A stretch of DNA of 64,000 nucleotides from Plasmodium brasilianum (lineage: Eukaryota > Apicomplexa > Aconoidasida > Haemosporida > Plasmodiidae). Location: NCBI RefSeq assembly GCF_023973825.1, contig NC_090125.1, positions 2,825,412 to 2,889,411 of the forward strand, in the 5' to 3' direction. The translations under genes were made by a program, and so were the position numbers. How positions within the stretch are numbered: position 1 is the first letter of the stretch; each line of letters starts with the position of its first letter. This document shows positions 2,400 to 64,000 of this stretch, piece by piece. The notes beneath the pieces were generated by a model that was not told the origin of the DNA, ran no database searches, and saw nothing but the letters and a program-made list of their open reading frames with translations.

Positions 2400-4217
2400 A
2401 TGGTGACACTATATTCATTCATTAAAGACACATTTTTTTTTTTTTTGAAAAGGAATTGCAATTATTGGTTATTAAAAAGGAATATAATTCTATGTATCCA
2501 TAGTAACAAATATCATACACATGTTAATTATTTTGATAGACCTGTAAAGAGACCAACATTAATTGTAAACGAGAAATGTGTGAAGAATATACTTAATGGT
2601 TTTCCTTGGATATATTCCAAGGATGTGAAAAATGCAGAAGAATTATTTTTATATAGTCCTTGTTTAGTTAATATAAAAGATGAGTTCAATGAAAACATAG
2701 GAATAGGGATATACAATAAAAATTCAACTATTGCATCGCGAATATTAACTAGGAACATAAATGATAATATAAATGAAGAATTTTTTAATTGTAGAATAAA
2801 GAGAGCATATAAAAAAAGATTAGAATTATTTCCTAATGATAACTTTTTTAGAGTTGTAAATGCAGAAAGTGATTCGTTACCAGGTATTATTATTGATAAA
2901 TTCAATAAGCTTATATGTGTTCAAATAAATGCAAGTGGAATGGATATACTGTCTCATGTTATATTAAAAAGCATTGAAAATGTTTTAACACCAGATGTAA
3001 TTATTTTAAAGAATGATAATCAAATAAGAAAACTAGAAAAATTACCTCTAAAAAAAGAAGTATATAAAGGTTTATATACATCACCAATAGAAGTTAGAGA
3101 AAATGGGTTAACATTTTTTGTGGATATATTGAGAGGACAAAAGACAGGATGGTATTATGATCAAAGATATAATCGTTCAATGCTTATTTCATATTGTAAG
3201 AATAAAAATGTATTAGATTTATTTTCATATACAGGCTCCTTTGGTATTACTTTAGCTTATTATGGTGCTAATGAAGTAACCTGTGTTGATTCCTCTTATC
3301 TAGCTATTCAAAATGGAATAAAATCAGCTCAATATAATAACGTGTTAGATAAAATAAATTTTGTGCATTCCTGCGTTAAAAAATTCTTTAATGTATGTTT
3401 GCATGTTCAGTTAATAACTGCTTTCAGGAAAGGGGAAACTTCGAAAAATGGAAAGAGTTGTCATTTGGTAAGAATAAATCAAGAGAAAAAAAATAATGAA
3501 GCAAAGTATTTTCCAAGTGGAAGGGAAGAACAAAATAATGAAGCAAAGTATTTTCCAGGTGGAAGGGAAGAACAAAATAATGAAGCAAAGTATATTCCAG
3601 GTGGAAGGGAAGAACAAAGTAATGAAGCAAAGTATATTCCAGGTGGAAGGGAAGAACAAAATAATGAAGCAAAGTATTTTCCAGATGGAAAGGAGGAACA
3701 AGTTAATTCAACCAAACATGACATGAACAGTTCAGAAAAATCGAATTATATAAATAAACAGGAATGTGAAAAAGGGGAGCAGAAACTCTTTTCAGATATT
3801 GAGAATATATTTATATATGAAAAGAGTAATAGTAATACAACCCATATAGAGGATATAGAAAGCTTACTAATTAAAAACAATAATTATGATTTTTTCAAAA
3901 AAAAATATGATGTTATATTAATAGACCCACCTGCACTAGCACGTAACAGTTATTTATTACCATCTGCATTAAAAGTTTACGAAAAACTTTTGTATATTTC
4001 ATTTAAAATAATGCAAAAACCTGGATATGTCTTTGTGTCAAGTTGCAATAAATTAGTAGGTTATGAGGAATTAATTCTTTGTATAAGAAGATCATTGAAT
4101 TGGTCCAATTGCGAGGGTACAATAATAGGTGAAGGAAGAATTAGTTCAGATCATCCTATTCATGTTTCATTGCCAGAGACGAAATATTTAACGTCCGTTC
4201 TTTTAATGGTTACATAG
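2400..4217 (+). CDS. RlmI-like SAM-dependent RNA cytosine-C5 methyltransferase
   Basis: 605 residues, single exon. The first ~45 residues mix hydrophobic and basic residues and may be an organelle-targeting leader (inference). A PUA-like domain follows (about 55-120, NGFPWIYSKDV), then the RlmI-family linker (RVVNAESDSLPGIIIDKF) and the segment FVDILRGQKTGWYYDQR. The Rossmann methyltransferase core shows the SAM-binding motif VLDLFSYTGSFG (about 270) and the motif IV sequence DVILIDPPA (about 508), then YVFVSSCN with the family's catalytic-region cysteine. Bacterial RlmI methylates C1962 of 23S rRNA to m5C; an organellar rRNA target is plausible here. About 395 residues are usual; the extra length is a low-complexity insert at about 345-495, inside the catalytic domain, with a 14-residue tandem repeat. 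Confidence 0.85.
   Translation: MVTLYSFIKDTFFFFLKRNCNYWLLKRNIILCIHSNKYHTHVNYFDRPVKRPTLIVNEKCVKNILNGFPWIYSKDVKNAEELFLYSPCLVNIKDEFNENIGIGIYNKNSTIASRILTRNINDNINEEFFNCRIKRAYKKRLELFPNDNFFRVVNAESDSLPGIIIDKFNKLICVQINASGMDILSHVILKSIENVLTPDVIILKNDNQIRKLEKLPLKKEVYKGLYTSPIEVRENGLTFFVDILRGQKTGWYYDQRYNRSMLISYCKNKNVLDLFSYTGSFGITLAYYGANEVTCVDSSYLAIQNGIKSAQYNNVLDKINFVHSCVKKFFNVCLHVQLITAFRKGETSKNGKSCHLVRINQEKKNNEAKYFPSGREEQNNEAKYFPGGREEQNNEAKYIPGGREEQSNEAKYIPGGREEQNNEAKYFPDGKEEQVNSTKHDMNSSEKSNYINKQECEKGEQKLFSDIENIFIYEKSNSNTTHIEDIESLLIKNNNYDFFKKKYDVILIDPPALARNSYLLPSALKVYEKLLYISFKIMQKPGYVFVSSCNKLVGYEELILCIRRSLNWSNCEGTIIGEGRISSDHPIHVSLPETKYLTSVLLMVT
3487..3705 (+). repeat. 42-bp coding tandem repeat inside the methyltransferase
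   Basis: About five copies of a 42-bp unit encode the 14-residue unit EQNNEAKYFPGGRE with small changes (N/S, F/I, G/S/D). The unit length is a multiple of three, so copy number can change without breaking the frame. It lies between the SAM-binding and DPPA motifs, so it should loop out of the fold. Confidence 0.9.
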
Positions 4218-20418: not shown

Positions 20419-22995
20419 TTAATACCAAGATTCTAATATAATAGAGAAATCGTCTATTTTTTTTTTTAAAAATAAATTTATTTCTTCCATGCTTTTATTT
20501 TGTTCCTTTTGTTTTATAATATTAGCAAACATTTTAATTAAATTTTGCGAAAATGGACGAGATTTTCCTGATATTAAAATTATTGTATTTATATTTTTTA
20601 AATGTTCATAAATCATGTCTTGTAACATCAAAATTAGATCAGTTACATATAATTTTTTCTTTTCTTTCAAAAGTTGTTTCATTTCTTCGTAGTTCATTTG
20701 AATAATTCTATTTTCTCTTGTTTCGAAATATTTGTTCGGGTTTGTCGAGTTATTATATGTATTATCACGTGAACACTTTTGAACTTCCTCGTTATAAAAG
20801 AGAAAATTGTCCCTTTCGAGTCTGGAGAAAGCCACAAATATATAATTGAAATATAAATAATTTTGTAACTCCTCTTGAAAATAGAAATCGTTTAACCTGT
20901 TTCTAAAACCAAGGAAAAGAAGATCTTTATTGAACGAGTTGCATGACGAATAAACGTTTTTCTTTTCGTTTTGCTTTTCCTTTGGCTTGTTTTTATACAG
21001 ACGATTATACAAATAATGGCGATGTCGAATAACCCCTAGTAGGCTACTGAAAGCTGCTCCTATAGAAATATAAATAATTCTATAATTAAGATTTAATATA
21101 TTTTTATTTGTGCATAATAAGCTATTTTCAATTTTGGCATAAATGCAGGAGCCAGGTTTTAAATTTATTAAATAATCTGAACACAGTCCAACACATTTTT
21201 TATTTTTATTTATTGTAGTTTCGTATAAGCACACTAATAATTCAATAATATCTATCTTATTTTGCGTTATTCTATTTCTTATTATGTTGGTATATTTTAA
21301 CGAATAAATCATTTTCTCCATCATTATGTTATAGGTATAAGAAGACAAAATGTTTAACGCATTTTTTTTTTTATTTATATAATAATTTAATTTCAAAATA
21401 TGAATAATCCAAGAAAAATTTGGGTTTGTGCTAAAGTAGTACAAATTATAAAAGTTAAAATTTTTTAAAAAATAATAAGAATCTATAGTATTCAATATGG
21501 AATAACATCTCTCTTGAATAGATGGTAATGTGTTAATAAGAAAGGACACATCAATTTTTATATAATTATAAAAATCAAAAAATATATCATAATATGACCT
21601 TTTATCTTGATAAACGTAGGAAAAATAATCTGAAATATTGTTCGTGTCAGCAAGTTGTAAAAATTTCTTTTTGTGTATATCACTAACTGTTTTTTTACTT
21701 AAATATAAAAAAAAAAAAGGAGTAACAATTTTATTAAGATCTAGAAAATATATAAACAAATCTAATATTTTTATTTTTTTATTAACAGGAATAAATGTGT
21801 TATTTGTACAATGTACATGATCGTTTTGAATAATTATTATATAATCATTATAATTAATTTTTAATAAATTTAAAATATTTTTTGTCTTCTCTTCATTTAA
21901 AAATGGATGAACTTTTATTAAATCGCTCACATTAAAACATCGTGTTGGGGCTATTAAATCAATGTATCTAACATCTTGATGATACGATTCATCACTACAT
22001 TTTTCAGTTTTTAACACTTCAAATTTCATGAAATTTGACGACTTACAAAAATATTCATCTATACTGAAATCTGCATAATTTGTAATAATATTATCACTAC
22101 TAATAGTATTGTTCTCATAAATGTTATGACACTTTTTCCCTTCCAAATTTGAATATTCGTATTGCAGTTTCTTTACCACCTTATTTATTTCACCGCCTAT
22201 GTTAGTGCACGATTCCTCTAACTGCTCCTCCTTTGCTTGATATTTGTTCGTATTTACATTTACCACAACGGAAACTTTTCCATTATTTGTTTCATCATAT
22301 GGTGTAGTTACATTATCATCCTTTATCGTGTTTACTTTGTAAGAATTGCTTTTTTTGATTTTCGTTTTACCATTTTTATTAGCTGTGATTTCTTCTTTTT
22401 GGCTTATTTTTATTCCATTATCTTTTTGCTGTTCATTTTTAGAATGACTATATATATGCTTTACGTTAAACAAGCATGGAATATTATCATTTATTTGAAA
22501 ATGAAAAAAATTTTTTTTTAAAAACTCATAAACGTTCGCCTTCCAAATATTGAAATTTGTAAAATGCATTGAAGGATGTTGATAATTACCTAAGTTATAA
22601 TTAACAATATTAGCATCCAATGATTTTAGTTTTTTTCTTAATTTTTTAGCTACAATGTTATAATTATCATATGAACTATCACCTAGGCCAAATAAATGAA
22701 AATTCATGGTATCATAAAATACTAAGTTCGTCTTATGTAAGTCTTTCCAAAACTTGGACATGTTATGTGTATAGCAACCATATCCTGTTGTACTAACAAT
22801 TATAATAATATTTTCATATCTATAAAAGCTCATTAAATTTACATCATTCAAGCAAAAAAAATCTATATGAAAATGCATATACAGTTCATATAAAACATTT
22901 CTGCAGCAGTCGTAGGCCGTGCCATATTCTGAACCGTACAATAATAAAATTTTGCTCCTCTTCTTTATATCATCATCCATCGTACTGTTAAACAT
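20419..22995 (-). CDS. TAH18: NADPH-dependent diflavin oxidoreductase (TAH18/NDOR1)
   Basis: Single exon, 858 residues. An N-terminal flavodoxin-like FMN domain (about 10-175) shows LLYGSEYGTAYDC, IIVSTTGYG and FHLFGLGDSSYDNYN. A Lys/Asn-rich insert (about 180-330) is followed by the FAD domain with ERCYSI (about 493, the RxYS motif) and a degenerate NADP(H) domain: YISIGAAFSSLLGVIRHR, LLFLGFRNRLNDFYFQEEL, FVAFSRLERDNF, ISGKSRPFSQNL and an aromatic C-terminus (ESWY). Tah18 passes electrons from NADPH through FAD and FMN to Dre2 for cytosolic Fe-S cluster assembly. Typical members have about 600 residues. The GTGxAPF-like pyrophosphate motif and the late CG motif Cys are altered here. Cytochrome P450 reductase is the main alternative; the lack of a membrane anchor argues against it. 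Confidence 0.8.
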   Translation of the reverse strand: MFNSTMDDDIKKRSKILLLYGSEYGTAYDCCRNVLYELYMHFHIDFFCLNDVNLMSFYRYENIIIIVSTTGYGCYTHNMSKFWKDLHKTNLVFYDTMNFHLFGLGDSSYDNYNIVAKKLRKKLKSLDANIVNYNLGNYQHPSMHFTNFNIWKANVYEFLKKNFFHFQINDNIPCLFNVKHIYSHSKNEQQKDNGIKISQKEEITANKNGKTKIKKSNSYKVNTIKDDNVTTPYDETNNGKVSVVVNVNTNKYQAKEEQLEESCTNIGGEINKVVKKLQYEYSNLEGKKCHNIYENNTISSDNIITNYADFSIDEYFCKSSNFMKFEVLKTEKCSDESYHQDVRYIDLIAPTRCFNVSDLIKVHPFLNEEKTKNILNLLKINYNDYIIIIQNDHVHCTNNTFIPVNKKIKILDLFIYFLDLNKIVTPFFFLYLSKKTVSDIHKKKFLQLADTNNISDYFSYVYQDKRSYYDIFFDFYNYIKIDVSFLINTLPSIQERCYSILNTIDSYYFLKNFNFYNLYYFSTNPNFSWIIHILKLNYYINKKKNALNILSSYTYNIMMEKMIYSLKYTNIIRNRITQNKIDIIELLVCLYETTINKNKKCVGLCSDYLINLKPGSCIYAKIENSLLCTNKNILNLNYRIIYISIGAAFSSLLGVIRHRHYLYNRLYKNKPKEKQNEKKNVYSSCNSFNKDLLFLGFRNRLNDFYFQEELQNYLYFNYIFVAFSRLERDNFLFYNEEVQKCSRDNTYNNSTNPNKYFETRENRIIQMNYEEMKQLLKEKKKLYVTDLILMLQDMIYEHLKNINTIILISGKSRPFSQNLIKMFANIIKQKEQNKSMEEINLFLKKKIDDFSIILESWY

Positions 22996-26250: not shown

Positions 26251-27753
26251 ATGGTACTAACAGAACTTGGAGCGCAACTTACGAATGCACTGCAAAAACT
26301 TCAAACATCAACTATTGCAGATGATATTGTTATTGAAGAATGTTTAAAGGAAGTGGTAAGAGCATTAATTTTGGCTGATATAAATGTTGTGTATTTAAAA
26401 GACATAAAAACGAATATAAAAAAAAATATTGAAAAGAATATTGATATATATGGGAACAATAAAAAAAGATTAGTTCAAAAATATGTTGTTGAAGAATTAA
26501 TTAATTTGTTAGAAGGTAAAAAAGAATGTTATGTACCAACAAAAGGGGGTAGGAATGTCATATTATTCGTTGGATTACAAGGTAGTGGTAAGACAACTAC
26601 ATGTACAAAATATGCCCATTATTACCAAAAAAAAGGGTTTAAAACAGCATTAGTATGTGCAGATACATTTAGAGCTGGTGCATTTGATCAATTAAAACAA
26701 AATGCAGCACAAGTAAAAATTCCTTTCTATGGTAGTTATTCAGAAGTAGACCCAGTAAAAATTGCAAAGGATGGTGTAGATGCATTTTTAAAAGATAAAT
26801 ATGATTTGATTATTGTTGATAGTTCTGGTAGACATAAACAAGAAAATGATTTATTTGAAGAAATGAAACAAGTTGAAAATTCTATTAAACCGGAGGAAAT
26901 CATATTTGTTATTGATAGTCATATAGGTCAAAGTTGTCATGATCAAGCTATGGCTTTTAAAAATTCAGTAACATTAGGAAGTATTATAATTACAAAAATA
27001 GATGGTCATGCAAAAGGAGGAGGTGCATTATCAGCAGTAGCTGCAACAGGTTGTCCTATTACATTTATAGGAACAGGTGAACATATAAATGACTTTGAAA
27101 AATTTGAAGCAAAGTCTTTTGTATCTAGATTATTGGGGTTAGGTGATATTAGTGGACTAGTTTCAACATTAAAAGAAGTTATAGATATTGAGAAACAACC
27201 ACAATTAATGAATAGATTATCCAAAGGGAAATTTGTTTTGAGAGATATGTATGATCAATTTCAAAATGTGCTAAAAATGGGTAGTTTAAGTAAAGTAATG
27301 TCTATGATACCTGGGTTTGGTAATAATATTATTAGTAAAGGTACAGAGAAGGAAGGAATTGATAAAATTAAAAAATTTATGGTCATTATGGATTCAATGA
27401 CAAATGAAGAATTAGATTGTATTAAACCTCTTAATGATAGTCGTACTTTAAGAATCTGTAAAGGTTCAGGTACTCGACTTCAAGATGTAAGGGAATTATT
27501 AGAACAGTTCAAATTTTTGCAAAAAGTGGCTTTAAAAATGGGTAAATTAGGATTAAAAGAAAATAACCTAGGCGGTTTAATGAGAAATCAAAAACAATTT
27601 TTGAGTAGGATGAATAATATAATGGATCCGAATATGCTCAGTCATATGGGAGGAGCTAACAATATGGTTAACATTTTGAAAGAATTTACAAAAATGGAAG
27701 ATTTTGGTGGTTCTATGGCTAATATGATGAAGCAGATGGGTTTGAAGAAGTGA
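26251..27753 (+). CDS. SRP54: Signal recognition particle 54 kDa subunit
   Basis: Single exon of 500 residues, the usual length for eukaryotic SRP54. An N-terminal four-helix N domain (1-90) is followed by the GTPase G domain: P-loop GLQGSGKTTT (about 107), CADTFRAGAFDQL, DSSGRH (usually DTAGRH), IDSHIGQS, TKIDGHAKGGG, then the closing GLGD loop. The Met-rich M domain (about 325-500; IPGFGNN, RNQKQFLSRMNN, LSHMGG, MMKQMGLKK) binds 7SL RNA and signal peptides. SRP54 recognises nascent signal sequences and, with its receptor, delivers ribosomes to the ER. There is almost no low-complexity insertion, in contrast to its neighbours. The identification is certain. Confidence 0.98.
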   Translation: MVLTELGAQLTNALQKLQTSTIADDIVIEECLKEVVRALILADINVVYLKDIKTNIKKNIEKNIDIYGNNKKRLVQKYVVEELINLLEGKKECYVPTKGGRNVILFVGLQGSGKTTTCTKYAHYYQKKGFKTALVCADTFRAGAFDQLKQNAAQVKIPFYGSYSEVDPVKIAKDGVDAFLKDKYDLIIVDSSGRHKQENDLFEEMKQVENSIKPEEIIFVIDSHIGQSCHDQAMAFKNSVTLGSIIITKIDGHAKGGGALSAVAATGCPITFIGTGEHINDFEKFEAKSFVSRLLGLGDISGLVSTLKEVIDIEKQPQLMNRLSKGKFVLRDMYDQFQNVLKMGSLSKVMSMIPGFGNNIISKGTEKEGIDKIKKFMVIMDSMTNEELDCIKPLNDSRTLRICKGSGTRLQDVRELLEQFKFLQKVALKMGKLGLKENNLGGLMRNQKQFLSRMNNIMDPNMLSHMGGANNMVNILKEFTKMEDFGGSMANMMKQMGLKK

Positions 27754-29972: not shown

Positions 29973-30948
29973 CTAATTTGTTATTTTTTTTAAAAAAAAG
30001 GTGTATTTTTTTTTCATATTGGCAATAGAATCCTTTTCCTTATCAAATGATTTATCATTTATTTGGTTGTCTTCACAATTATCGTCATACGTATTTCGTT
30101 TTCTATCTAATCTTAATTTCCTACAAAAAAAAAGCGAGTTCAGTATATATGAAATGTACCACATAAATATTTAATGTTACGGAAAAAAAGACATCTGTAA
30201 AAGCCAAATAAATATATAATAATTATCATATATTACTTTATATACGATGCTGAGTTAAAAATTTTGAATTCACAGCTCGTCAGCGTTCCTCTTATCCATC
30301 GATGGTTTAGAATATCTGCACACTGTAAAAATGGGGAAAAAATATATATAAATAAATATGTACATAAACTTATGCATTCACATACACATCAAAAAGCACG
30401 TCTTAAATATACAACAATCATATAAAATGAAAAAGTTATATTTAATAAAGAAATATTCAATATTTAATATGCAATATTCGACGATCATGTTTTTCATATT
30501 TTTATGGTCATTTTCAATTCTTGCTTATTACGCTAAATCTTTTGTCTGGATCATGAACTAATATATTTTCTAATAAATTTTTGAGTCCCGGCTGAATATT
30601 TAAAGATTTTTCCTTTGACAATCTAAAAGGGTGAGAAAAAAAAAAATATTAATAAATAAACATAAATGGGTATATGTACAACTTGCATGCTTATTTATAC
30701 TGGCATAAACATAGAAATATACACATACATGTTTATAAAATATGTATGTACACAGACTACCACCATGCTTCCCATTTTTGTGCTTACAGTTCTGGGATGT
30801 TAGCTTTAAGAATGTTGTTATATAGTTCATTAGCATTTTTCCCGGTGAAGGGTACTTTACCCGTAATTATAAAAAATATTAAAACACCTAGACTCCATAT
30901 GTCGATCTGATGGAAGGAGGGGAAAATTAATAAAAAAATGTTAAACGC

Positions 30949-30991
<43 letters not shown>

Positions 30992-32618
30992 ATATATATA
31001 TGTAAATGTAAAAGTGCGTGTGTATGTATATATATAATACACAGTAGAACAACTGTCTCTATATATATATATCTAAATATCCCTACTTTTATTCCATATT
31101 CTTTGTTCTTTATAATTTCTGGAGCTAAATAAAAATCGCTTCCACAAACAGATCTACTTTTTACAACGGCTTGATTTGACGGAGTTATTTTGGCTAGTCC
31201 GAAGTCTGACAAGACTACACTTTTGACATTATCCTTAGTTCTAAGCAAAATGTTTTCTGGTTTAATATCTCTATGCATAATTTTTAAAGAATTTATATAC
31301 TGTATAGTTTTTGTTAACTTTATAATAATAACCCTTGCTTCTGAATGCGTGCAACTGCCATTTATTTTTATATACTCGAACAAGTTACCTCCCTCACAGT
31401 ATTCAAGAATTATTTTAACTATATAGTACTCTACAGGGAAATAAAATGAGGAGAAATTTAAACAAGGTGAAACAAAACATACACACAAATGAACATATAC
31501 ATATATATATACATATGTGCAAAGGTATATGTAAGCACAATATTTGCCCATTTTGTTATTTAATTTTCAATTTCTAACTTTTCCAAATTTTTTCATGATA
31601 ATCAAGAATTTTAACAATATATGGGTGTTTATTATTTATTGTTTTCATTATAAACAATTCCCTCTTAAAGCAGTTATAATGTGATGTTTTTTTAAGGGGG
31701 CAGCACATTAACTAAAAAGGGGGGGGGAAAAAAAAAAAAAAAGAAAGGAAAGATGTAAATAAGAATAATGCAAAGAAGTTGTATAACATAACTCATTCTG
31801 CATATAAAAGTTAACATTTTACTATCACTTTGTGTATGCACTTATGTATAACATATATTACTCTATAATATTCATGCATATAAGTTCGTTTTTTATTTTA
31901 TTATTTTTTTTATCTTTTATCTTTTTTCTTTTTTGTCGTTGTTACATACCTTCATTGCACATTTTTTTTTATTTTCACCTCTACAACAAAATACTTTTGA
32001 AAAGTTCCCACTGCAAAAAAAAACAAAACAAAATTTTTAAAAATTAAAAACAAAAATAATTTAACGTTTTTAACATTCGTACGTGTCAGAATTTTGCAAA
32101 AAGTACAGAATAAAACAAGGTTTATAAAATGAAAAATTATGTGATTACTCTCCAATTTTATTAATTATTTTATATTTTTTTATAAATTCCAAGTTTGAAT
32201 CGTGTTCTTCATTTTTCTTTTGTCTTTTGTTCTCGGAAGTGTCATTTTTTGTACTTTTATCTGAAAAAAAAAAGGAAGAATATTAAGTCAATTTTGCATT
32301 TTAAATAAATAAAAAATAATTTTTCTTTAACTATATCAAATATGGGTGCATAGATTATAAAAGACGACAATAAAAATAAATATATCGTATTAACAAATTA
32401 TAAATATTCACAAAAAAATTGAATATACACATTTCTTTATTTATCACTTGAGAGTAAATAAGTACAAATCACATCATATTTTAATTTATAAACGTATGCA
32501 CACTTGTATATGTATGTATATATCTATATATGTACGTGTAAAAAAACATTTTGTCGAAATTCTTGTACGCGTTTATCTTACCCAAATTGTTTTTTCTTTT
32601 ACTGATGGCTGTCCCCAT
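29973..32618 (-). CDS. Serine/threonine protein kinase, CAMK-like, likely N-myristoylated (9 exons)
   Basis: Nine exons (32618-32582, 32260-32149, 32010-31950, 31711-31579, 31430-31087, 30906-30788, 30622-30532, 30322-30237, 30120-29973) join in phase at every GT...AG boundary to give 376 residues. It begins MGTAIS, a good N-myristoylation signal. The kinase domain (about 43-305) is complete: glycine loop GDGNFSKVF, catalytic Lys in CAMK (71), C-helix Glu in KREL (89), HRDIKPEN (D170), DFG (D191), CGSDFYLAPE, KIDIWSLG, and DPDKRF with HRWI near the end. The activation segment and sub-domain XI look CAMK/SNF1-like; there are no EF hands. The tail (about 325-376) is charged. It should be an active kinase at membranes; the substrate is unknown. 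Confidence 0.87.
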
Positions 32619-38458: not shown

Positions 38459-41400
38459 ATGGAATACTGTAGTAAAAAAATTGAGGACTTAGTGAAGGGC
38501 AAGGTGCTATTGGGGGAGTTACAAAATGACGAAAACAACTATTTAATGAAAAAGTTACTAAATAATATTGTCGAAATAGTGAAATTAACAAATAAGATAT
38601 CTTATAATTGTTTATATAAGAACAATGTAGATAGTGTAATGTCTAATAGCTCAGAAATAAAAGACTTGCAAAATGAGTTATTAAAAACTGTATACGATTT
38701 ATTACTGTACAGTAGCAATGATAAAACAAAAAATATGTTAAAAGATCAATATGCAAAAGACTATTCTGTTTTACCGAATAATTATCATATTATATCCTCA
38801 ACATTAGAAGAGATAATTTCAAGGTCAAAAGACTGTTTCAAATTTTTCCATATAGATAATAAGGATACATCAATTTTAACATGCAGAAATACAAAAAATG
38901 TAAGTAGCAATTATTTAAATGATTCTGAAGGTATTGATAGAAACTATTTGAACGAAGTGGTTTATTCGCAGCTTACACAGAAAAAGGAAAAAAATGAAAT
39001 ATCTGATGAACATCATAATGAGGAATACCAGAAAACAGGAAATAAATGTAATTATAATATTCTCAGTATTGGTGAGAGAAAGGAAGAAAATAGCGGTAAA
39101 TGTTATGTGGAAAAATTCGACAAAAAGATGAATAACAGTGAAACAACTCTTATGAGGGATATAAAAGAAGAAGAGAGTACTATTTTTGAAAAAATACTTA
39201 ATCCTAATATTTTGATAATTGATAATGATTCAGAAGACAGTTGTATACTTACAGATGTCCAAAATAATAGTAATAAGAAAGTAAAAAAAGAAATATATAA
39301 AAATTCAAAAAGAAAAAAACAAAAAAGTACATCTACAACTGAGCGGAATAAGGGTAAATATAATAAGGAGGATGCTTTTCATCATAAGGAGAATACTGAT
39401 AAAAAAGTTCAGAATTCCTGGTTACACTTGACAAATAATTATGCAAAAATTTTTATTCCTCGTGTTCCATTCAAATATAACAAATTGGTTGATCTAAATG
39501 ACGATTTAATAGAAGCAATGGAATGTCAAGAACGCTATATCAAAAAGAAGAAATTATTATTGCAGTATCGAGAAGAATTTAATTGTAAAAAGTTAAAATA
39601 TACAAGTAGTGCTGATATTATAAAGGAAATATTTAATGACAACGAAATAAGAGAAATAAATGACGCAATAAGCGACGTAAGTGAGATCAGTGATATGGGC
39701 AAAAAAGAGGACCAGGTGAGTGTAGTCAACAAAATGAATTGCTCAAGTAACTCAATTAACGCGAATAACTCGAATAATGCGAATAACTCGAATAATGCGA
39801 ATAACATGGAGGAATGTAAAAGAGTAAAAGACGAAAAAGGGGGGATGTTTCCTCCCTCGTGTAGTAGTTCCGATATCTCTATTACAAATTACAACAGTGT
39901 TATTAGCGACGATTTTTTTTGTAAAATGTTAAAAAAATTGAACAAGGAAATAAACAAATATGATTACAAATTTAGTAGTTTAAGTCATCCTTATGAATAC
40001 GAAATAAATAACCTGATTGAACTATACAAGAATTGTGATGATAGCATTTCAAAGTTTGTAAAAATAAATGTGGAATTAACAAAGCCATTAAAAATAAATG
40101 AAAAAGAATATAAAATAATTGATAAGAGGAGTGAATTAATAGATATGATAAATGTAATAAAAACAAGACAAGATAGGTTTTCTATAATGGTAGCTGTAAA
40201 TTATAAAAACTCATATCGTGGATTCAGCTCTTTAATTCTAATAGGAACTAGTGAGCTTGATTATATTATTGATGTTTATACCATATTTGAGGATATATAT
40301 CTATTAAATGAAATAACAACGGACCCTAGTATATTGAAAATTACGTATAATTCTGAAAATGTTATCCTATATTTGCAAAAAGACTTTTCTATTTATTTTG
40401 TTAACATTATTGATATTTTAATTTGTTCAAATTATTTAAATATAAAAAATACACTAACGTATTTAGTTTACAATTATTTTAATGTTAGCATTAATTCCAT
40501 TGGGCTTTCTTCAAAATATTTGACTCGACCCCTTACTCCTGATGTTATTTATACTTTGAGAATTTCGTTTCACTATTTGTATTACCTATTTGACTATGTT
40601 CTTACGGACTTGTATTTCAACTTCGTATTTAATAAGTGTAGAAGTGATGATAGAAATGATGACCGAGTTAATGACAAAATTGAGGATGAAGACAAAATTA
40701 AAAAAAGTGACGAGGAAAACGATGAAAATATTACTGCAATATGGATCAACCATAAGGATTCTAATATCAGTGGTACAGGAAATATTTACGTGAATTTTGA
40801 AAAAATAAAATTTGTTGACTTATCTGAAGAGGAAAAAAAATATGGAGAAGAAATTATAAGGAACGTATTTATGCATAGTAATAAAGCATGTACAAAAGTT
40901 CATAAAGTAAAAGATGTTTGCGATATTATGAAGACGAAGGAACAAATAAAAACAATTATAAAAGCATCATACTGTTTGAATAATTCTGATAATTTAATAG
41001 AGGATATATTAATATGGAGAGAAAAATTATCAAAAAAAAAAGACGAATCACCTGATTATATAATTAATATTCATAATATCATTTCTATTATTCTAAATAT
41101 GCCAACATCCATGTCTAATTTAAAAAGTAATATAGTACCATTGTCAAACACGTTATCAGAAAATTTAGAAGCCTTATTTGAAATTATTATTAAATCGAAT
41201 ATGAAGAAAAAAGCGAATGTTCACTTTTACTTGAATTATATTAAAAATGATAGATTTAATAATAGTACCAATGGCAATGAAAAAAATATGATCATACATT
41301 ATTCATCCAATAAAGAAAAAGTAAATACAGAAAAATATGAAGAAGCTATTATCGTTCCCAGTATGCATTTTCAATGTATTTCTAATGATCACAAAAGCCA

Positions 41401-41971
41401 TTTTTCACATACGCAAAATGATGATAAAATAGTTCGAAGCGACCAAAAAGGTCGAAATAAGGCCTACGCAGTAGATGAAATATTTGCCTTAGAAAAAACG
41501 TTTTTTAGTGAAAGCGAAAATAATAGCGATTCGAAATGTCATAAAAGAATTAACGATAGTAAATGTATTAGTAATAGTGGTAATAATCATGGTAACAATC
41601 ATGGTAAAAATCTTGTTAACAATAATGATAATAAATATGGTAATAAATATGATAATAAATATGGTAATAAATATGGTAATAAATATGGTAATGAGAACCA
41701 TGAAAGCTACACACTCTTGTCTTCCTTACTTAGTTCTGTTAAAGATCGTAATGAGAGGGTGAGCTATGTGCATAATCACAGTAGTAGTAAGGACACTGAA
41801 CATAGTGTAAAAGCAGAACAGGGGAAGATTAAGAAAGACATAAATAAGAACAAAAAAAAACGCACTTATAATAACAAAAATAAGCAGATGTACCAGTCAT
41901 ATAATCAACAGTACAATATCAGAAGTAACAGAGGGCTATATTCCAGAAATATTCTGGATGAAATAAACTGA
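38459..41971 (+). CDS. RRP6: RRP6-like exosome factor with degenerate exonuclease site
   Basis: Single exon, 1170 residues. The N-terminal helical region (1-95) fits the PMC2NT domain that binds Rrp47. HPYEYEI (510) opens the exonuclease-like domain, which follows Rrp6 block by block: YRGFSSLILIGTSELDYIID, LLNEITTDPSILKI, YLQKDFSIYFVNIID, LTRPLTPDVIYTLR and a closing YLFD. An HRDC domain follows (about 845-910, W853; WREKLSKKKDESPDYIIN). The tail is Asn/Lys-rich with a NKYGNKYD-type repeat. Rrp6 is the nuclear exosome's distributive 3'-5' RNase. Here every DEDD-Y position appears changed: Asp to N581, Glu to K583, Asp to V635, Tyr to T699 and Asp to S703. It therefore probably acts as a scaffold rather than a nuclease (inference). 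Confidence 0.88.
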   Translation: MEYCSKKIEDLVKGKVLLGELQNDENNYLMKKLLNNIVEIVKLTNKISYNCLYKNNVDSVMSNSSEIKDLQNELLKTVYDLLLYSSNDKTKNMLKDQYAKDYSVLPNNYHIISSTLEEIISRSKDCFKFFHIDNKDTSILTCRNTKNVSSNYLNDSEGIDRNYLNEVVYSQLTQKKEKNEISDEHHNEEYQKTGNKCNYNILSIGERKEENSGKCYVEKFDKKMNNSETTLMRDIKEEESTIFEKILNPNILIIDNDSEDSCILTDVQNNSNKKVKKEIYKNSKRKKQKSTSTTERNKGKYNKEDAFHHKENTDKKVQNSWLHLTNNYAKIFIPRVPFKYNKLVDLNDDLIEAMECQERYIKKKKLLLQYREEFNCKKLKYTSSADIIKEIFNDNEIREINDAISDVSEISDMGKKEDQVSVVNKMNCSSNSINANNSNNANNSNNANNMEECKRVKDEKGGMFPPSCSSSDISITNYNSVISDDFFCKMLKKLNKEINKYDYKFSSLSHPYEYEINNLIELYKNCDDSISKFVKINVELTKPLKINEKEYKIIDKRSELIDMINVIKTRQDRFSIMVAVNYKNSYRGFSSLILIGTSELDYIIDVYTIFEDIYLLNEITTDPSILKITYNSENVILYLQKDFSIYFVNIIDILICSNYLNIKNTLTYLVYNYFNVSINSIGLSSKYLTRPLTPDVIYTLRISFHYLYYLFDYVLTDLYFNFVFNKCRSDDRNDDRVNDKIEDEDKIKKSDEENDENITAIWINHKDSNISGTGNIYVNFEKIKFVDLSEEEKKYGEEIIRNVFMHSNKACTKVHKVKDVCDIMKTKEQIKTIIKASYCLNNSDNLIEDILIWREKLSKKKDESPDYIINIHNIISIILNMPTSMSNLKSNIVPLSNTLSENLEALFEIIIKSNMKKKANVHFYLNYIKNDRFNNSTNGNEKNMIIHYSSNKEKVNTEKYEEAIIVPSMHFQCISNDHKSHFSHTQNDDKIVRSDQKGRNKAYAVDEIFALEKTFFSESENNSDSKCHKRINDSKCISNSGNNHGNNHGKNLVNNNDNKYGNKYDNKYGNKYGNKYGNENHESYTLLSSLLSSVKDRNERVSYVHNHSSSKDTEHSVKAEQGKIKKDINKNKKKRTYNNKNKQMYQSYNQQYNIRSNRGLYSRNILDEIN

Positions 41972-47169: not shown

Positions 47170-47858
47170 TTACAACTTATCTAAGTAAAACAACTGATCC
47201 TTTAATTCCATGTGGCTTGGCAATTTGCTATTCTTAATACATTCGCTGAATAACTCGAGATAAGGCTCTAATTCATTAATGTGTTTTGTAAATTTTGCAC
47301 TTTTTAAACATAAGCGTAAAGAATTGGAATATCTTTCTCTCTTTTCTATACCAACAGGTATTTTTGGAATAACATTTTTTTTTAAGTCTTGTAAAATTAA
47401 TGCTAACGCTTCTCTAGTTAAATCTATAAAATTTGCTTTATATTCTTCTTTATTTTGGTAACAGTAATCTGAATAATAATCATTTGAAAAAATAAAATTA
47501 CAATCATTATCGTTATTGTATTTATTATTTTTTCCTTTGTTTGCATTTTCATTGTAATCATAAATGAGGGGTTTTATATAAATTATATCTTCATTTGTTT
47601 GTTCAGGGGAATCCATTTGAAAATCTTTGTCAGTTATTATGCAACTGCTATGGTTGTTTTGGAATTTCTCGTAGCTGTTATTTCTATCATTATATGCATT
47701 TCCATCGTAGCTATGGCTTCCACCATTACAGTAATTCCCATCGTGGTGCGTGTTATGGGTGCCATAGCTGTTATTACCATTATTATTATTATAATTATTA
47801 TTATTATTATTATTACTATTACTATTATTATAGTTATTACTATTATTATAGTTATTAC

Positions 47859-47894
<36 letters not shown>

Positions 47895-49256
47895 TACTAT
47901 TATTATAGTTATTACTATTACTATTATTATAGTTATTACTATTACTATTATTATAGTTATTACTATTATTATTATTACTATTATTATTACTCTTATTATT
48001 ATTATTATTATTATTATTATAATTATTATTATTATAATTATTATTATTATAATTATAATTATTATTATAATTATTATAATTATTATTATTAGTAGTAGTA
48101 TTATTATTATTATTATTATTATCATTATTATTATTATTACTATTATTATTATTAATATTATACAAATTCTTGTCATGTTTTACAAGGTAACTAAATTTAT
48201 CTTTAGCTTTCTTTTTTTTGTTTTTATTATCTATATAATTATTATTCAATTCATGTGTGTATTTATCGTTCTTTTCGTAAGAAATTTCGGGGTATGCAAG
48301 ATTATCTGTTTCGTCTTTTAGGATCTTATATATATCATTATTTATATTATTATTTATTCTACCATTCGTGTTCTTATTATTACGGCTGCTTCGACTGTTA
48401 TTATAATTATAAATGCCATTATCATTATGATTTGTAATTGCGTCGTTATTGCCATTGATATTATTATTACCATTGATATTATTATTACCAGTTTTATAAT
48501 AAATTTTGTTGTTATTGTTACATTTTTCATTTTCCTTTTCTATATCCGGGTAATACTTACAGTTCCCCCTTCGTGTGTTATATCTTCTCTTTCTATTTGT
48601 TGTTTCATATATTCCGTTCATATTTAATTTATCATTATTCATAACAACCGTATATTGCGGGTAATTCACATTAACTACATTTTTACTATTAACGCATGTA
48701 TCTGCTTCTATTTTCTCTTCAAAAGATTTCTTATTATTCTTGTAATTAAGATCGTTCATATATGCATTATTTATATAATCATTTCCATTGCTGTTACTTT
48801 CAATTTTTAATTCACTCGAAACATAATTTCTTTGCTTATGTTTCTCTTCGACATTTCCATTATTGCTATTATCCAAACTGTTGTTCACGCTGTTGTTCAC
48901 GCTGTTATTCACGCTGTTATTCACGCTGTTATTCACGCTGTTGTTTATGCTATTGTTAATACTATTGCTTGCGCTATTATTAACGCTATTGCTATAATTG
49001 TAATAGGTTGCATTTTTGCATTCTACGGCTAACATTTTAGCCTTTTTGAATCCATGTTTTTTTACTGAAAATACTCGGAGGTGTCTTCCACTTCCTTTCA
49101 CACACGCTAACCAACATTTCGTTCTAGCATTATACCACACCCCTTTATTTTTTGTGTTATCATCATTTGATTCGTAAATATCTGATTCGTTTATATCTGT
49201 CACCCTTTCGAATACTCCGTTTTTACATAAATTAGTCGTTCCGTTCTCTAATAACA

Positions 49257-49289
<33 letters not shown>

Positions 49290-61848: not shown

Positions 61849-64000
61849 TCAAGAGGAAAAAAGAGATTTCAATACTTGGTAATTAATTTTCCCAGAAAGA
61901 TTTCTGTCTGATTTTTCAAGAGCCCTCAAAACAGAATCTCCTGTTGATTGAGTATCCTGAAGATCATCTACTTTTTTTTTTTGTTTGTTTCTCATTTTAT
62001 TTTTTCCATTCGTAGTATTATCAGTATTATTTCTTTTCTTTTTTTTTCTCAACTGTTTTGATAAATGTGGTAAATAATTTTTCATCATGTCATCCCATAT
62101 GAGCATTTTTATTTCCTTTTCCTTTTCAGATAACATAATATTCTCCATTTCACTATCATAAATGTCGCTTAATGTTTCATCATCAGGTTCTATCGATGTA
62201 TCTGAGTTTGAATTGAAGTTAACACTTTGGTCATTGGTACAATTAGAGTTATTTTCAAAGAAATAGCTCAAGTCGGTTAGAGCACTGCTAACATTGTTCG
62301 CACTCTTCAATCCATTGAAGATATTGTCACTACATCCAATTTCTGTATTATTTATATTTTTACCTTGTATATTATTACATTCTAAATAGTTAAATTCATC
62401 TACATCATTAAGTACACTACTTAGCTCTGAGTTTACAGTTTCTTTCAGGGTAGAGCAATAAAAATTGTTATCTGTCAATTCGCTACCTTTGTTTGAACAT
62501 TCTTCTTCAAATAAATTCGTTTTGCTACTACGGCTTAGATTATCTAACTGATAAGTAGTACTGCAACCATCAAAGCCTGTAAAATCACTACAACTATTAC
62601 TATTCATAGCATTATGAAGTTTACTAATATTTTGGGGCTCCCTTATTTCATCTGCGTTTGCAAAATTTTTACAACTATATGCACACGTTATATTACTTTT
62701 ATTTAATTCATTGTCTTTGTCTAAAATGGGTGAAGTAGTTATTGAATACTCTAAATCTGACATTTTGTTTGTATTAGGAATTGAAAAAACGGATTTCATG
62801 GATAAGGCATCCACATCCTTTTCTTCCCCTTTCTGTTTCATATACTCCCTTTCTACGTTATCGTGCTCTTTTTCATTAATGCTGCCAGTGGTGCTAATAC
62901 TGCCAATACTACCTGTACTACTAGTAGTAACACCATTACTGCAAGCCTTGCCTGCTTTACTTTTTGCAAAATTATTATTTATTTTGAGCTTGTCACAACT
63001 CCCTTCTATACTAATAGTGTTCATAATTTTTAATGCTAAATTATCTATATCATTTCCCTCAGGATTGTCATTACATATTTCTTCTAAATTTATTCCACTA
63101 TTCGATAAAATCCCACTTTCTTGATTTTTCTTTTGTGCTATATTATTTACTAGGTCCGTTCTTTCCCTCTCTCTTCCCTCTTCCGCTCCCTTTTGCATTT
63201 CCCTTTCCCTTTGTTCTTCCCCTTGCTTATCCCTTTCGATATCCCTACCCTCACTCACAGCACAACTAACCGTAGTGCAATATTCTAGCTCATTACAAGA
63301 TGAGTGGTTATCCACAAAAGAAAAGTTATTACAAGTATCAGCATCATTATAGACATCATCATATATGGTATTAATAACACTATTGCGCAATGAACTACTG
63401 TCATCGAGAATTTTTGGCGTGTATACTTCTTCCGTTAGATTCTCTGAATCATATAACGATTTTGTACTAGCAGTAAACTGTTCTTCGGAGTGAAGCAAGG
63501 ATAATGTTTTATTTTTTTCTATTATTTCATATTTTAATTTTCTTTTATTATACGAAATAACACATGGAGGTATAGTACTTGAAGGTATATCATTAATACT
63601 GATTGAATCAAATTCGCTAGCTTTAATTTTAGCAGTATTGGTATTTTTAAATTCTGACAATCTTTTAATAATAGTAGGATTTGAAATTCTAACAATGTTA
63701 GCTATCGTATTCGAATTAATTGGAATACCATGCATCCTTGTTGATATTAAAAGAGCAGCACCACATAAACCTGTTGGTCTTCTACCTGTACTTATCCAAT
63801 CTCTTGTCATCGCTTGAATGAGTTTGATACCTGTATAAGTAACTTTATATATATCATTCTTTAAATTAAGTTTATGAGCAAATCTTTCTAAGAATAAAGA
63901 GGGATCTATGTTTGGAACATTGATATGTAATAATCTTAATAATTTTAAAAAAGTTTTTCCTAAAGGTTTTACAGGTGTTTGTAATATATCACTAAAATCT
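61849..64000 (-). CDS. BRF1: BRF1, TFIIIB subunit (5' end outside window)
   Basis: The frame is open from the right edge to the stop at 61849, about 717 codons; the zinc ribbon and first cyclin fold lie outside. The visible N-part is the second cyclin fold (RDWISTGRRPTGLCGAALLI and RISNPTIIKRLSEF), very close to BRF1 (RRPSGLCGAALLVAARMH, TLRKRLTEF). A long Asn/Ser/Glu-rich linker follows, and near the C-terminus a block ETLSDIYDSEMENIMLS then EKEIKMLIWDDMMKNYL matches BRF homology block II, which binds TBP. BRF1 with TBP and BDP1 recruits RNA polymerase III to tRNA and 5S genes. The conserved RRPTGLCGAALL block rules out TFIIB. Basic KKKKRN and KQKKKV clusters near the end may be nuclear signals. 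Confidence 0.92.
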   Translation of the reverse strand, partial: DFSDILQTPVKPLGKTFLKLLRLLHINVPNIDPSLFLERFAHKLNLKNDIYKVTYTGIKLIQAMTRDWISTGRRPTGLCGAALLISTRMHGIPINSNTIANIVRISNPTIIKRLSEFKNTNTAKIKASEFDSISINDIPSSTIPPCVISYNKRKLKYEIIEKNKTLSLLHSEEQFTASTKSLYDSENLTEEVYTPKILDDSSSLRNSVINTIYDDVYNDADTCNNFSFVDNHSSCNELEYCTTVSCAVSEGRDIERDKQGEEQREREMQKGAEEGRERERTDLVNNIAQKKNQESGILSNSGINLEEICNDNPEGNDIDNLALKIMNTISIEGSCDKLKINNNFAKSKAGKACSNGVTTSSTGSIGSISTTGSINEKEHDNVEREYMKQKGEEKDVDALSMKSVFSIPNTNKMSDLEYSITTSPILDKDNELNKSNITCAYSCKNFANADEIREPQNISKLHNAMNSNSCSDFTGFDGCSTTYQLDNLSRSSKTNLFEEECSNKGSELTDNNFYCSTLKETVNSELSSVLNDVDEFNYLECNNIQGKNINNTEIGCSDNIFNGLKSANNVSSALTDLSYFFENNSNCTNDQSVNFNSNSDTSIEPDDETLSDIYDSEMENIMLSEKEKEIKMLIWDDMMKNYLPHLSKQLRKKKKRNNTDNTTNGKNKMRNKQKKKVDDLQDTQSTGDSVLRALEKSDRNLSGKINYQVLKSLFSS

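What the first reader, a model, noticed from the sequence alone, without database searches (positions are those of the whole stretch)
40196..40570. RRP6-like protein has lost all five DEDD-Y catalytic residues
Aligning by eye to yeast and human Rrp6, the domain keeps its framework (YRGF, LNEITTDPSILKI, YLQKDF, TRPLTPDV, HYLYYLFD and the HRDC domain) but the catalytic positions read N581 and K583 (for Asp and Glu in VDLEH), V635 (for Asp in the MDIIWLQ-type motif), T699 (for Tyr) and S703 (for Asp in ARxDTHFLL). The gene is a clean 1170-codon ORF, so this is not decay. It suggests a pseudo-enzyme that keeps Rrp6's scaffold or cofactor roles while Dis3 does the cutting, or an RNA-binding role.
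Basis: partly seen in the sequence, partly recalled or inferred. Interest (0 to 1): 0.82.

Follow-up and report, generated by a model that had tools for sequence, protein, structure and literature searches.

The report
Malaria parasite Rrp6 lacks catalytic residues
This gene encodes the malaria parasite's version of the RNA-trimming protein Rrp6, which keeps the enzyme's shape but none of the residues known to be needed for cutting RNA; the loss was already published in 2020, and whether the protein still cuts RNA remains unsettled.

Summary
Confirmed with a correction, and already in print. ORF 38459-41971 (+, 1170 aa) is the Plasmodium Rrp6/EXOSC10 ortholog and its genome's best match to T. 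brucei Rrp6. Alignments to human EXOSC10 put the five DEDD-Y positions at M577, A579, V635, T699 and S703. In 21 sequences (window plus 20 orthologs) none has any of the five residues, and none has an acid at the first three. Fan et al. 2020 (PMC7267889) already reported that DEDD is absent from all malaria parasites, named the P. falciparum set 'MKIE', and claimed activity that their four-site mutant did not abolish.

Added here: MKIE occurs in 3 of 21 sequences only, and the five columns drift at least as freely as the rest of the domain, which argues against a conserved substitute site. Of five other DEDD-type loci in the genome, four keep the motif.

Best reading: a probably essential pseudo-nuclease that serves as scaffold or RNA-binding exosome subunit, with Dis3 cutting (inferred). 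Published in vitro activity is the main contrary evidence. No ortholog outside Plasmodium/Hepatocystis was reached, so the loss is not dated further back.

The parts
38459..41971 (+). Rrp6/EXOSC10 ortholog, single-exon ORF, 1170 aa
   Evidence: best match to a T. brucei Rrp6 fragment in the own genome, 68.5 bits against 29.7 for the next
38459..38848 (+). N-terminal helical region (residues 1-130), in the place of PMC2NT; PMC2NT itself not detected
   Evidence: helices in a low-confidence full-length model; PF08066 not found; best solved-structure match of residues 1-140 E 0.051, unrelated
39410..39499 (+). conserved linker WLHLxNNYAKxFIPR (residues 318-347), perhaps co-linear with a human EXOSC10 stretch DNSNTPFLPKI
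   Evidence: FIP and NN in 21 of 21, FIPR in 20 of 21; the match to human scores -1.7 bits, suggestive only
39971..40612 (+). EXO (RNase D-type) domain, residues 505-718
40187..40189 (+). M577 at the first catalytic Asp (human D313)
40193..40195 (+). A579 at the catalytic Glu (human E315)
40199..40207 (+). N581-Y582-K583: Y582 and K583 invariant in 21 of 21 sequences; not the catalytic register
40361..40363 (+). V635 at the second catalytic Asp (human D371)
   Evidence: its place in the model is in a stretch of pLDDT < 50
40553..40555 (+). T699 at the catalytic Tyr (human Y436)
40565..40567 (+). S703 at the last catalytic Asp (human D440)
40991..41131 (+). HRDC domain (residues 845-891)
   Evidence: Pfam E 1.9e-4, 21.7 bits against cut-off 23.8; 15 of 21 sequences match at E <= 10; 26.8 bits, over the cut-off, in the six-frame search
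41756..41968 (+). basic C-terminal tail with conserved SYxxxYNI; candidate counterpart of the RNA-binding lasso
   Evidence: last 70 residues net positive in 20 of 21, +9 here, P0021 -11; SYxxxYNI in the last 60 residues in 20 of 21

Best explanation
The gene is the Plasmodium ortholog of the nuclear exosome subunit Rrp6. Its RNase D-type fold is kept, but all five residues of the two-metal DEDD-Y site have been replaced, so it most likely cannot bind the catalytic metals. The fold, linker, HRDC domain and basic C-terminal tail remain conserved, so it most likely works as a scaffold and RNA-binding subunit. In that role it would dock on the exosome core, hold structured or nascent RNA and an Mtr4-type helicase, and hand the 3' end to Dis3. 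Shown here: orthology, fold, absence and drift of the five positions, intact sites in most other nucleases examined. From papers: exosome co-localisation, RNA association and failure to obtain a knockout in P. falciparum. Inferred: lack of activity, transfer to Dis3, RNA-binding role of domain and tail.
For: No D/E at columns 577, 579 or 635 in 21 of 21 sequences; column 699 has E in 1 of 21 and Tyr in none; column 703 has E in 3 of 21 and S, P, H or T in 18. Five columns less conserved than random fives of the domain's 162 sites, P 0.002, not tree-aware; parsimony changes 3, 6, 5, 7, 5 against a median of 2.5 per site, P 0.028 for the five and 0.086 for the four DEDD columns. No obvious new acid to rebuild the site: of 12 columns acidic in at least 17 of 21 sequences, 9 are also acidic in human EXOSC10; the other three are 527 (no human counterpart), 539 (human Q) and 611 (human S). 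Domain model closest to Rrp6 structures. Own genome, motifs read by eye: 4 of 5 other DEDD-type loci keep D, E, D, Y and D; 1 has Asn for the last Asp; both RNB-domain loci keep DPxxAKDLDDA. Yeast: D238N alone makes Rrp6 exonuclease-dead, and the Rrp6 C-terminal domain stimulates Dis3, with Mpp6, about as exo-dead Rrp6 does (PMC5553935 passages; that D238 is the counterpart of human D313 is recalled). Precedent: the MAEL domain lost DEDD in animals; Bombyx Maelstrom is inactive and binds RNA (PMC4408791 abstract and one section). P. falciparum: knockout attempts failed, Rrp6 co-localises with Rrp4 and enriches rRNA, tRNA, snoRNA and RUF6 (PMC7267889).
Against: Jiang 2018 and Fan 2020 report ssRNA degradation by recombinant GST-PfRrp6 531-740, with GST as control. 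Fan 2020 reads the MKIE residues as 'likely involved' in activity and ascribes RUF6 decay to PfRrp6. P. falciparum and its two closest relatives keep one acid (E) at the last position. The tree-aware test for the four DEDD columns alone is not significant (P 0.086). PF01612 is matched in only 16 of 21 sequences even at E <= 10, so the family signal is weak in some. The models are of moderate (66.7) and low (37.1) mean pLDDT, V635 lies in a stretch under 50, and no metal site was measured. In yeast, Mpp6 stimulation of Dis3 was also seen where Rrp6 was absent, so a scaffold is not strictly required. PMC2NT was not detected; an Mpp6 was not searched for. No ortholog outside Plasmodium/Hepatocystis was reached. 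No binding of Dis3, Mtr4 or Rrp47 was tested.
Confidence: 0.7

Rival explanations
1. Active nuclease with an unconventional site: the substitutes (MKIE in P. falciparum) or nearby residues support catalysis, as Fan et al. 2020 propose.
For: Two papers report degradation of ssRNA by the recombinant domain. Y582 and K583 next to the old site are invariant in 21 of 21.
Against: MKIE occurs in 3 of 21 sequences only; other lineages have, at the same four columns, M/A/V/S, T/L/V/S, S/V/I/P, I/L/L/H and others. Aliphatic side chains are not Mg ligands (established chemistry). The published four-site mutant still degraded RNA, as expected of a contaminating RNase; that is my inference, the paper asks for more experiments.
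Confidence: 0.13
2. Exosome-independent role: the protein is an RNA-binding or chromatin-linked silencing factor (RUF6, heterochromatin) rather than a scaffold for Dis3.
For: RUF6 RNAs were enriched by PfRrp6 and not by the core subunit Rrp4; knockdown derepresses heterochromatic genes (PMC7267889).
Against: The same paper reports co-localisation with Rrp4 and rRNA, tRNA and snoRNA among the RNAs captured by Rrp6 or Rrp4; HRDC and basic tail are retained here.
Confidence: 0.14
3. Decaying pseudogene or misalignment: the domain is degenerate and the residues are meaningless.
For: Five losses at once, a weak HRDC score, and PF01612 matched in only 16 of 21 sequences.
Against: Open frame over 1170 codons and 20 orthologs with a conserved framework; the best structural matches are Rrp6; three sequence alignments and the published MKIE agree on the register.
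Confidence: 0.02

Closest known systems
Plasmodium falciparum Rrp6 (PF3D7_1449700; PMC7267889, PMC6282785)
   Same: Same gene by orthology; DEDD loss already reported for malaria parasites; the P. falciparum sequence P0016 carries the published M, K, I, E at columns 577, 579, 635, 703
   Different: This window's residues there are M, A, V, S: no acid left, whereas P. falciparum keeps E at the last position
Yeast Rrp6 / human EXOSC10
   Different: All five catalytic residues replaced; PMC2NT not detectable by sequence; long low-complexity stretches
Maelstrom MAEL domain (PMC4408791)
   Same: DEDD-fold nuclease domain that lost catalytic residues in one lineage and is kept as an RNA-binding module
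   Different: Different family, with a structural zinc site; keeps the first of the four residues in Bombyx; tested biochemically
Exd1 and Egalitarian exonuclease-like domains
   Different: Not exosome subunits; lower structural similarity than Rrp6

Membership tests
Rrp6/EXOSC10 (by descent) | EXO domain closest to Rrp6 in sequence | tested here: met
   All 14 PDB sequences listed at E <= 10 are Rrp6/EXOSC10, 13 through the EXO domain and one (E 1.3) through HRDC; best match to T. brucei Rrp6 in its genome
Rrp6/EXOSC10 (by descent) | HRDC domain C-terminal to EXO | tested here: met
   Below the Pfam cut-off in hmmscan (21.7 against 23.8), but aligned to the T. brucei Rrp6 HRDC and over the cut-off in the six-frame search (26.8)
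Rrp6/EXOSC10 (by descent) | N-terminal PMC2NT domain (binds Rrp47/C1D) | tested here: inconclusive
   No match in 21 sequences or the genome; the region is conserved and helical in a low-confidence model; a C1D/Sas10-family ORF exists
Rrp6/EXOSC10 (by descent) | Association with the exosome core | not testable with these tools
   Co-localisation with Rrp4 reported for P. falciparum (PMC7267889)
DEDD-Y exonuclease (as an enzyme) | Asp, Glu, Asp, Asp metal ligands and Tyr | tested here: not met
   0 of 5 residues in this protein; 0 of 21 sequences have any of the five native residues (an E in place of the last D in 3)
DEDD-Y exonuclease (as an enzyme) | RNase D-type fold | tested here: met
DEDD-Y exonuclease (as an enzyme) | Metal-dependent 3'-5' exonuclease activity | not testable with these tools
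   Published claims of activity exist, with mutants that keep it

The most novel reading that the evidence does not exclude
A whole parasite genus runs its nuclear exosome with an Rrp6 that is an obligate pseudo-nuclease, turned into an essential RNA-binding/silencing scaffold, so that Dis3 is the only exosome exonuclease; the published in vitro activity would be an artefact.
Probability: 0.5. Interest if true: 0.65.

Novelty: already known. Interest (0 to 1): 0.4.

Why it matters
Rrp6 is one of two exosome-associated exonucleases and has been tied to silencing of variant genes in P. falciparum (PMC7267889). If it is dead as an enzyme, 'RUF6 decay by Rrp6' must be re-read as recruitment, and Dis3 would be the sole exosome exonuclease. 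The drift of the site across the genus gives a direct test of the disputed activity: orthologs with quite different residues should behave alike if none is catalytic.

Tried and rejected
Dating the loss outside Plasmodium failed. Three protein searches returned 19 Plasmodium records and one labelled red colobus (P0021). P0021 is taken as Hepatocystis because the red colobus assembly is known to hold Hepatocystis sequence, a genus nested in Plasmodium (PMC7425995 passages); I did not test that record itself. The third search, with a T. brucei row added, scored 7993 candidates and gave 4 hits, all Plasmodium. No piroplasm or coccidian ortholog was seen, so I cannot say whether the loss is older than Plasmodium.

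The full-length model (mean pLDDT 37.1) was too poor to use beyond secondary structure. No coordinates were returned for either model, so the metal site could not be superposed residue by residue. A search of solved structures with residues 1-140 gave nothing useful. The weak RPA43_OB match (1 of 21 sequences) is taken as chance. Pseudogene and misalignment readings were rejected (see rivals). A literature search for 'Plasmodium, Rrp6, pseudoenzyme' gave 0 papers; figures and supplements of PMC7267889 were not seen. dN/dS was not computed: only the window's DNA is held, orthologs came as proteins. Mpp6 was not searched for.

In my MAFFT run the paralog L003 is shifted by one column at its D-x-E; its motif was read by eye instead, as were those of the other paralogs.

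Full report
The ORF at 38459-41971 (+) is open for 1170 codons. It hits Pfam DNA_pol_A_exo1 (E 7.5e-12) and, under the curated cut-off, HRDC. Against solved structures all 14 listed sequences are Rrp6/EXOSC10 from human, T. brucei and yeast, best E 3.7e-25. In the 31.4-Mb genome that holds the window it is the best match to a 135-residue T. brucei Rrp6 fragment, 68.5 bits against 29.7 for the next. So no second, better Rrp6 was found there, in six frames without regard to introns. Nineteen Plasmodium records, named Rrp6, 3'-5' exonuclease domain protein or hypothetical, match residues 500-920 at 52-62% identity, and P0021 at 44%. The species is not given; GC near 25% and a genome of 31 Mb suggest a Plasmodium such as the P. 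malariae group, which is my inference.

The catalytic register. HMMER alignments to human EXOSC10, with the single sequence and with a profile of 21 sequences, have no gap in the D-x-E strand; they and a MAFFT alignment with human added give D313 = M577, E315 = A579, D371 = V635, Y436 = T699, D440 = S703. The first two (N581, K583) match YRGF to YRSF and need a gap. Two outside checks agree with my register: the published P. falciparum residues M, K, I and E (PMC7267889) fall on columns 577, 579, 635 and 703 of P0016, and the domain model (model residue + 497) puts M577 in strand 76-81 and T699 and S703 in helix 197-229; V635 is at the start of helix 138-142, but in a stretch of pLDDT < 50. 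Human D313 and Y436 are named in PDB titles; the other human numbers are counted from D313. That yeast D238 corresponds to D313 is recalled.

Comparison across 21 sequences (the window, 19 other Plasmodium entries, and P0021). Columns in order: the window M, A, V, T, S; P. falciparum and P. reichenowi M, K, I, V, E; Plasmodium sp. DRC-Itaito M, K, I, L, E; P. ovale (2) T, L, V, T, S; vivax-type species S, V, I or V, N or H, P (P. gonderi H at the last); rodent species I, L or I, L, I, H; avian species M, R or K, V, I, S or T; P0021 M, I, A, E, S. No sequence has D/E at the first three, and none has any of the five native residues. By a similarity score the five columns are less conserved than random sets of five of the domain's 162 columns (P 0.002); that test ignores the tree. 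By parsimony on a FastTree tree the changes are 3, 6, 5, 7 and 5 against a median of 2.5 (P 0.028 for five; 0.086 for the four DEDD columns without Tyr). So the safe statement is that these columns drift at least as freely as the rest of the domain; a working active site would be expected to be fixed. Some deep nodes of the tree are weak (supports 0.31-0.39). Next to the old site Y582 and K583 are invariant in 21 of 21, perhaps a new RNA or protein contact (inference).

Could another acid rebuild the site? In one search, columns acidic in at least 17 of 21 sequences are 515, 527, 539, 605, 611, 618, 622, 642, 652, 695, 712 and 717, twelve in all. Human EXOSC10 is acidic at nine of them (515, 605, 618, 622, 642, 652, 695, 712, 717), so these look like framework; 527 has no human counterpart, 539 is Q and 611 is S in human. 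None of these three lies at a metal-site column in the sequence alignment; the geometry was not measured.

Surroundings in the genome. A search with PF01612 gave 7 matches in 6 loci including the window. Read by eye, 4 of the 5 others keep D-x-E, the second D, and Y-x3-D: L001 (also DNA_pol_A, so probably the apicoplast-type DNA polymerase), L003, L004 and L006/L007; L002 has N for the last D. Both RNB-domain loci, on C7 and C11, keep DPxxAKDLDDA, so a Dis3-type nuclease is available; which of them is Dis3 was not settled here. Two DSHCT (Mtr4/Ski2-type) helicase loci and a small C1D/Sas10-family ORF are present as possible partners. PMC2NT was not detected. The last 70 residues are net positive in 20 of 21 sequences and carry SYxxxYNI near the end in 20 of 21. 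In yeast the Rrp6 tail (lasso) is needed for Mpp6-dependent stimulation, and the C-terminal domain alone stimulates Dis3 about as exo-dead Rrp6 does, though stimulation of Dis3 by Mpp6 was also seen where Rrp6 was absent (PMC5553935 passages).

What is in print. Searches. Fan et al. 2020 (PMC7267889; passages, and sections 6 and 7 read; [quoted passage not shown] They failed to obtain a knockout, saw derepression of heterochromatic genes on knockdown, co-localisation with Rrp4, and enrichment of RUF6 and structured RNAs. Jiang et al. 2018 (PMC6282785; passages seen) report ssRNA degradation by the same fragment, used at 6 uM against 2.5 uM for Dis3 and 10 uM GST as control. Those results are the main evidence against my reading. 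My view that a contaminating RNase is a simpler account than a largely aliphatic active site is inference: it rests on the mutant result and on MKIE being confined to 3 of 21 sequences.

Verdict. The pseudo-nuclease interpretation is the best reading but is contested by published assays. The comparison across the genus made here is the main added weight. I did not find it stated in the passages I read, and Fan et al.'s supplementary alignment, which I could not see, may show the same residues.

Noticed in passing
L002 (G000:C5:364220-364792, -): Another RNase D-like protein of this genome has Asn in place of the last catalytic Asp while keeping the D-x-E, second Asp and Tyr (by eye); possibly another weakened exonuclease.
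   Followed up: partly
L014 (G000:C12:3060951-3061094, -): Small ORF (149 aa from its first Met) of the Sas10/Utp3/C1D family, a candidate Rrp47/C1D partner for Rrp6.
   Followed up: partly
41756-41968: Conserved short C-terminal motif SYxxxYNI at the end of a basic tail in 20 of 21 sequences; function unknown. P0021 ends differently.
   Followed up: partly
47170-49257 (-): ORF with AP2 and ACDC domains, an ApiAP2-type transcription factor.
   Followed up: no
61849-63810 (-): ORF with a TFIIB repeat and a Brf1-like TBP-binding domain, probably the RNA polymerase III factor Brf1.
   Followed up: no
2400-4217 (+), 20419-22995 (-), 26251-27753 (+), 30784-31551 (-): Neighbouring ORFs: PUA/SAM methyltransferase, flavodoxin/FAD-binding reductase, SRP54, and part of a protein kinase.
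   Followed up: no
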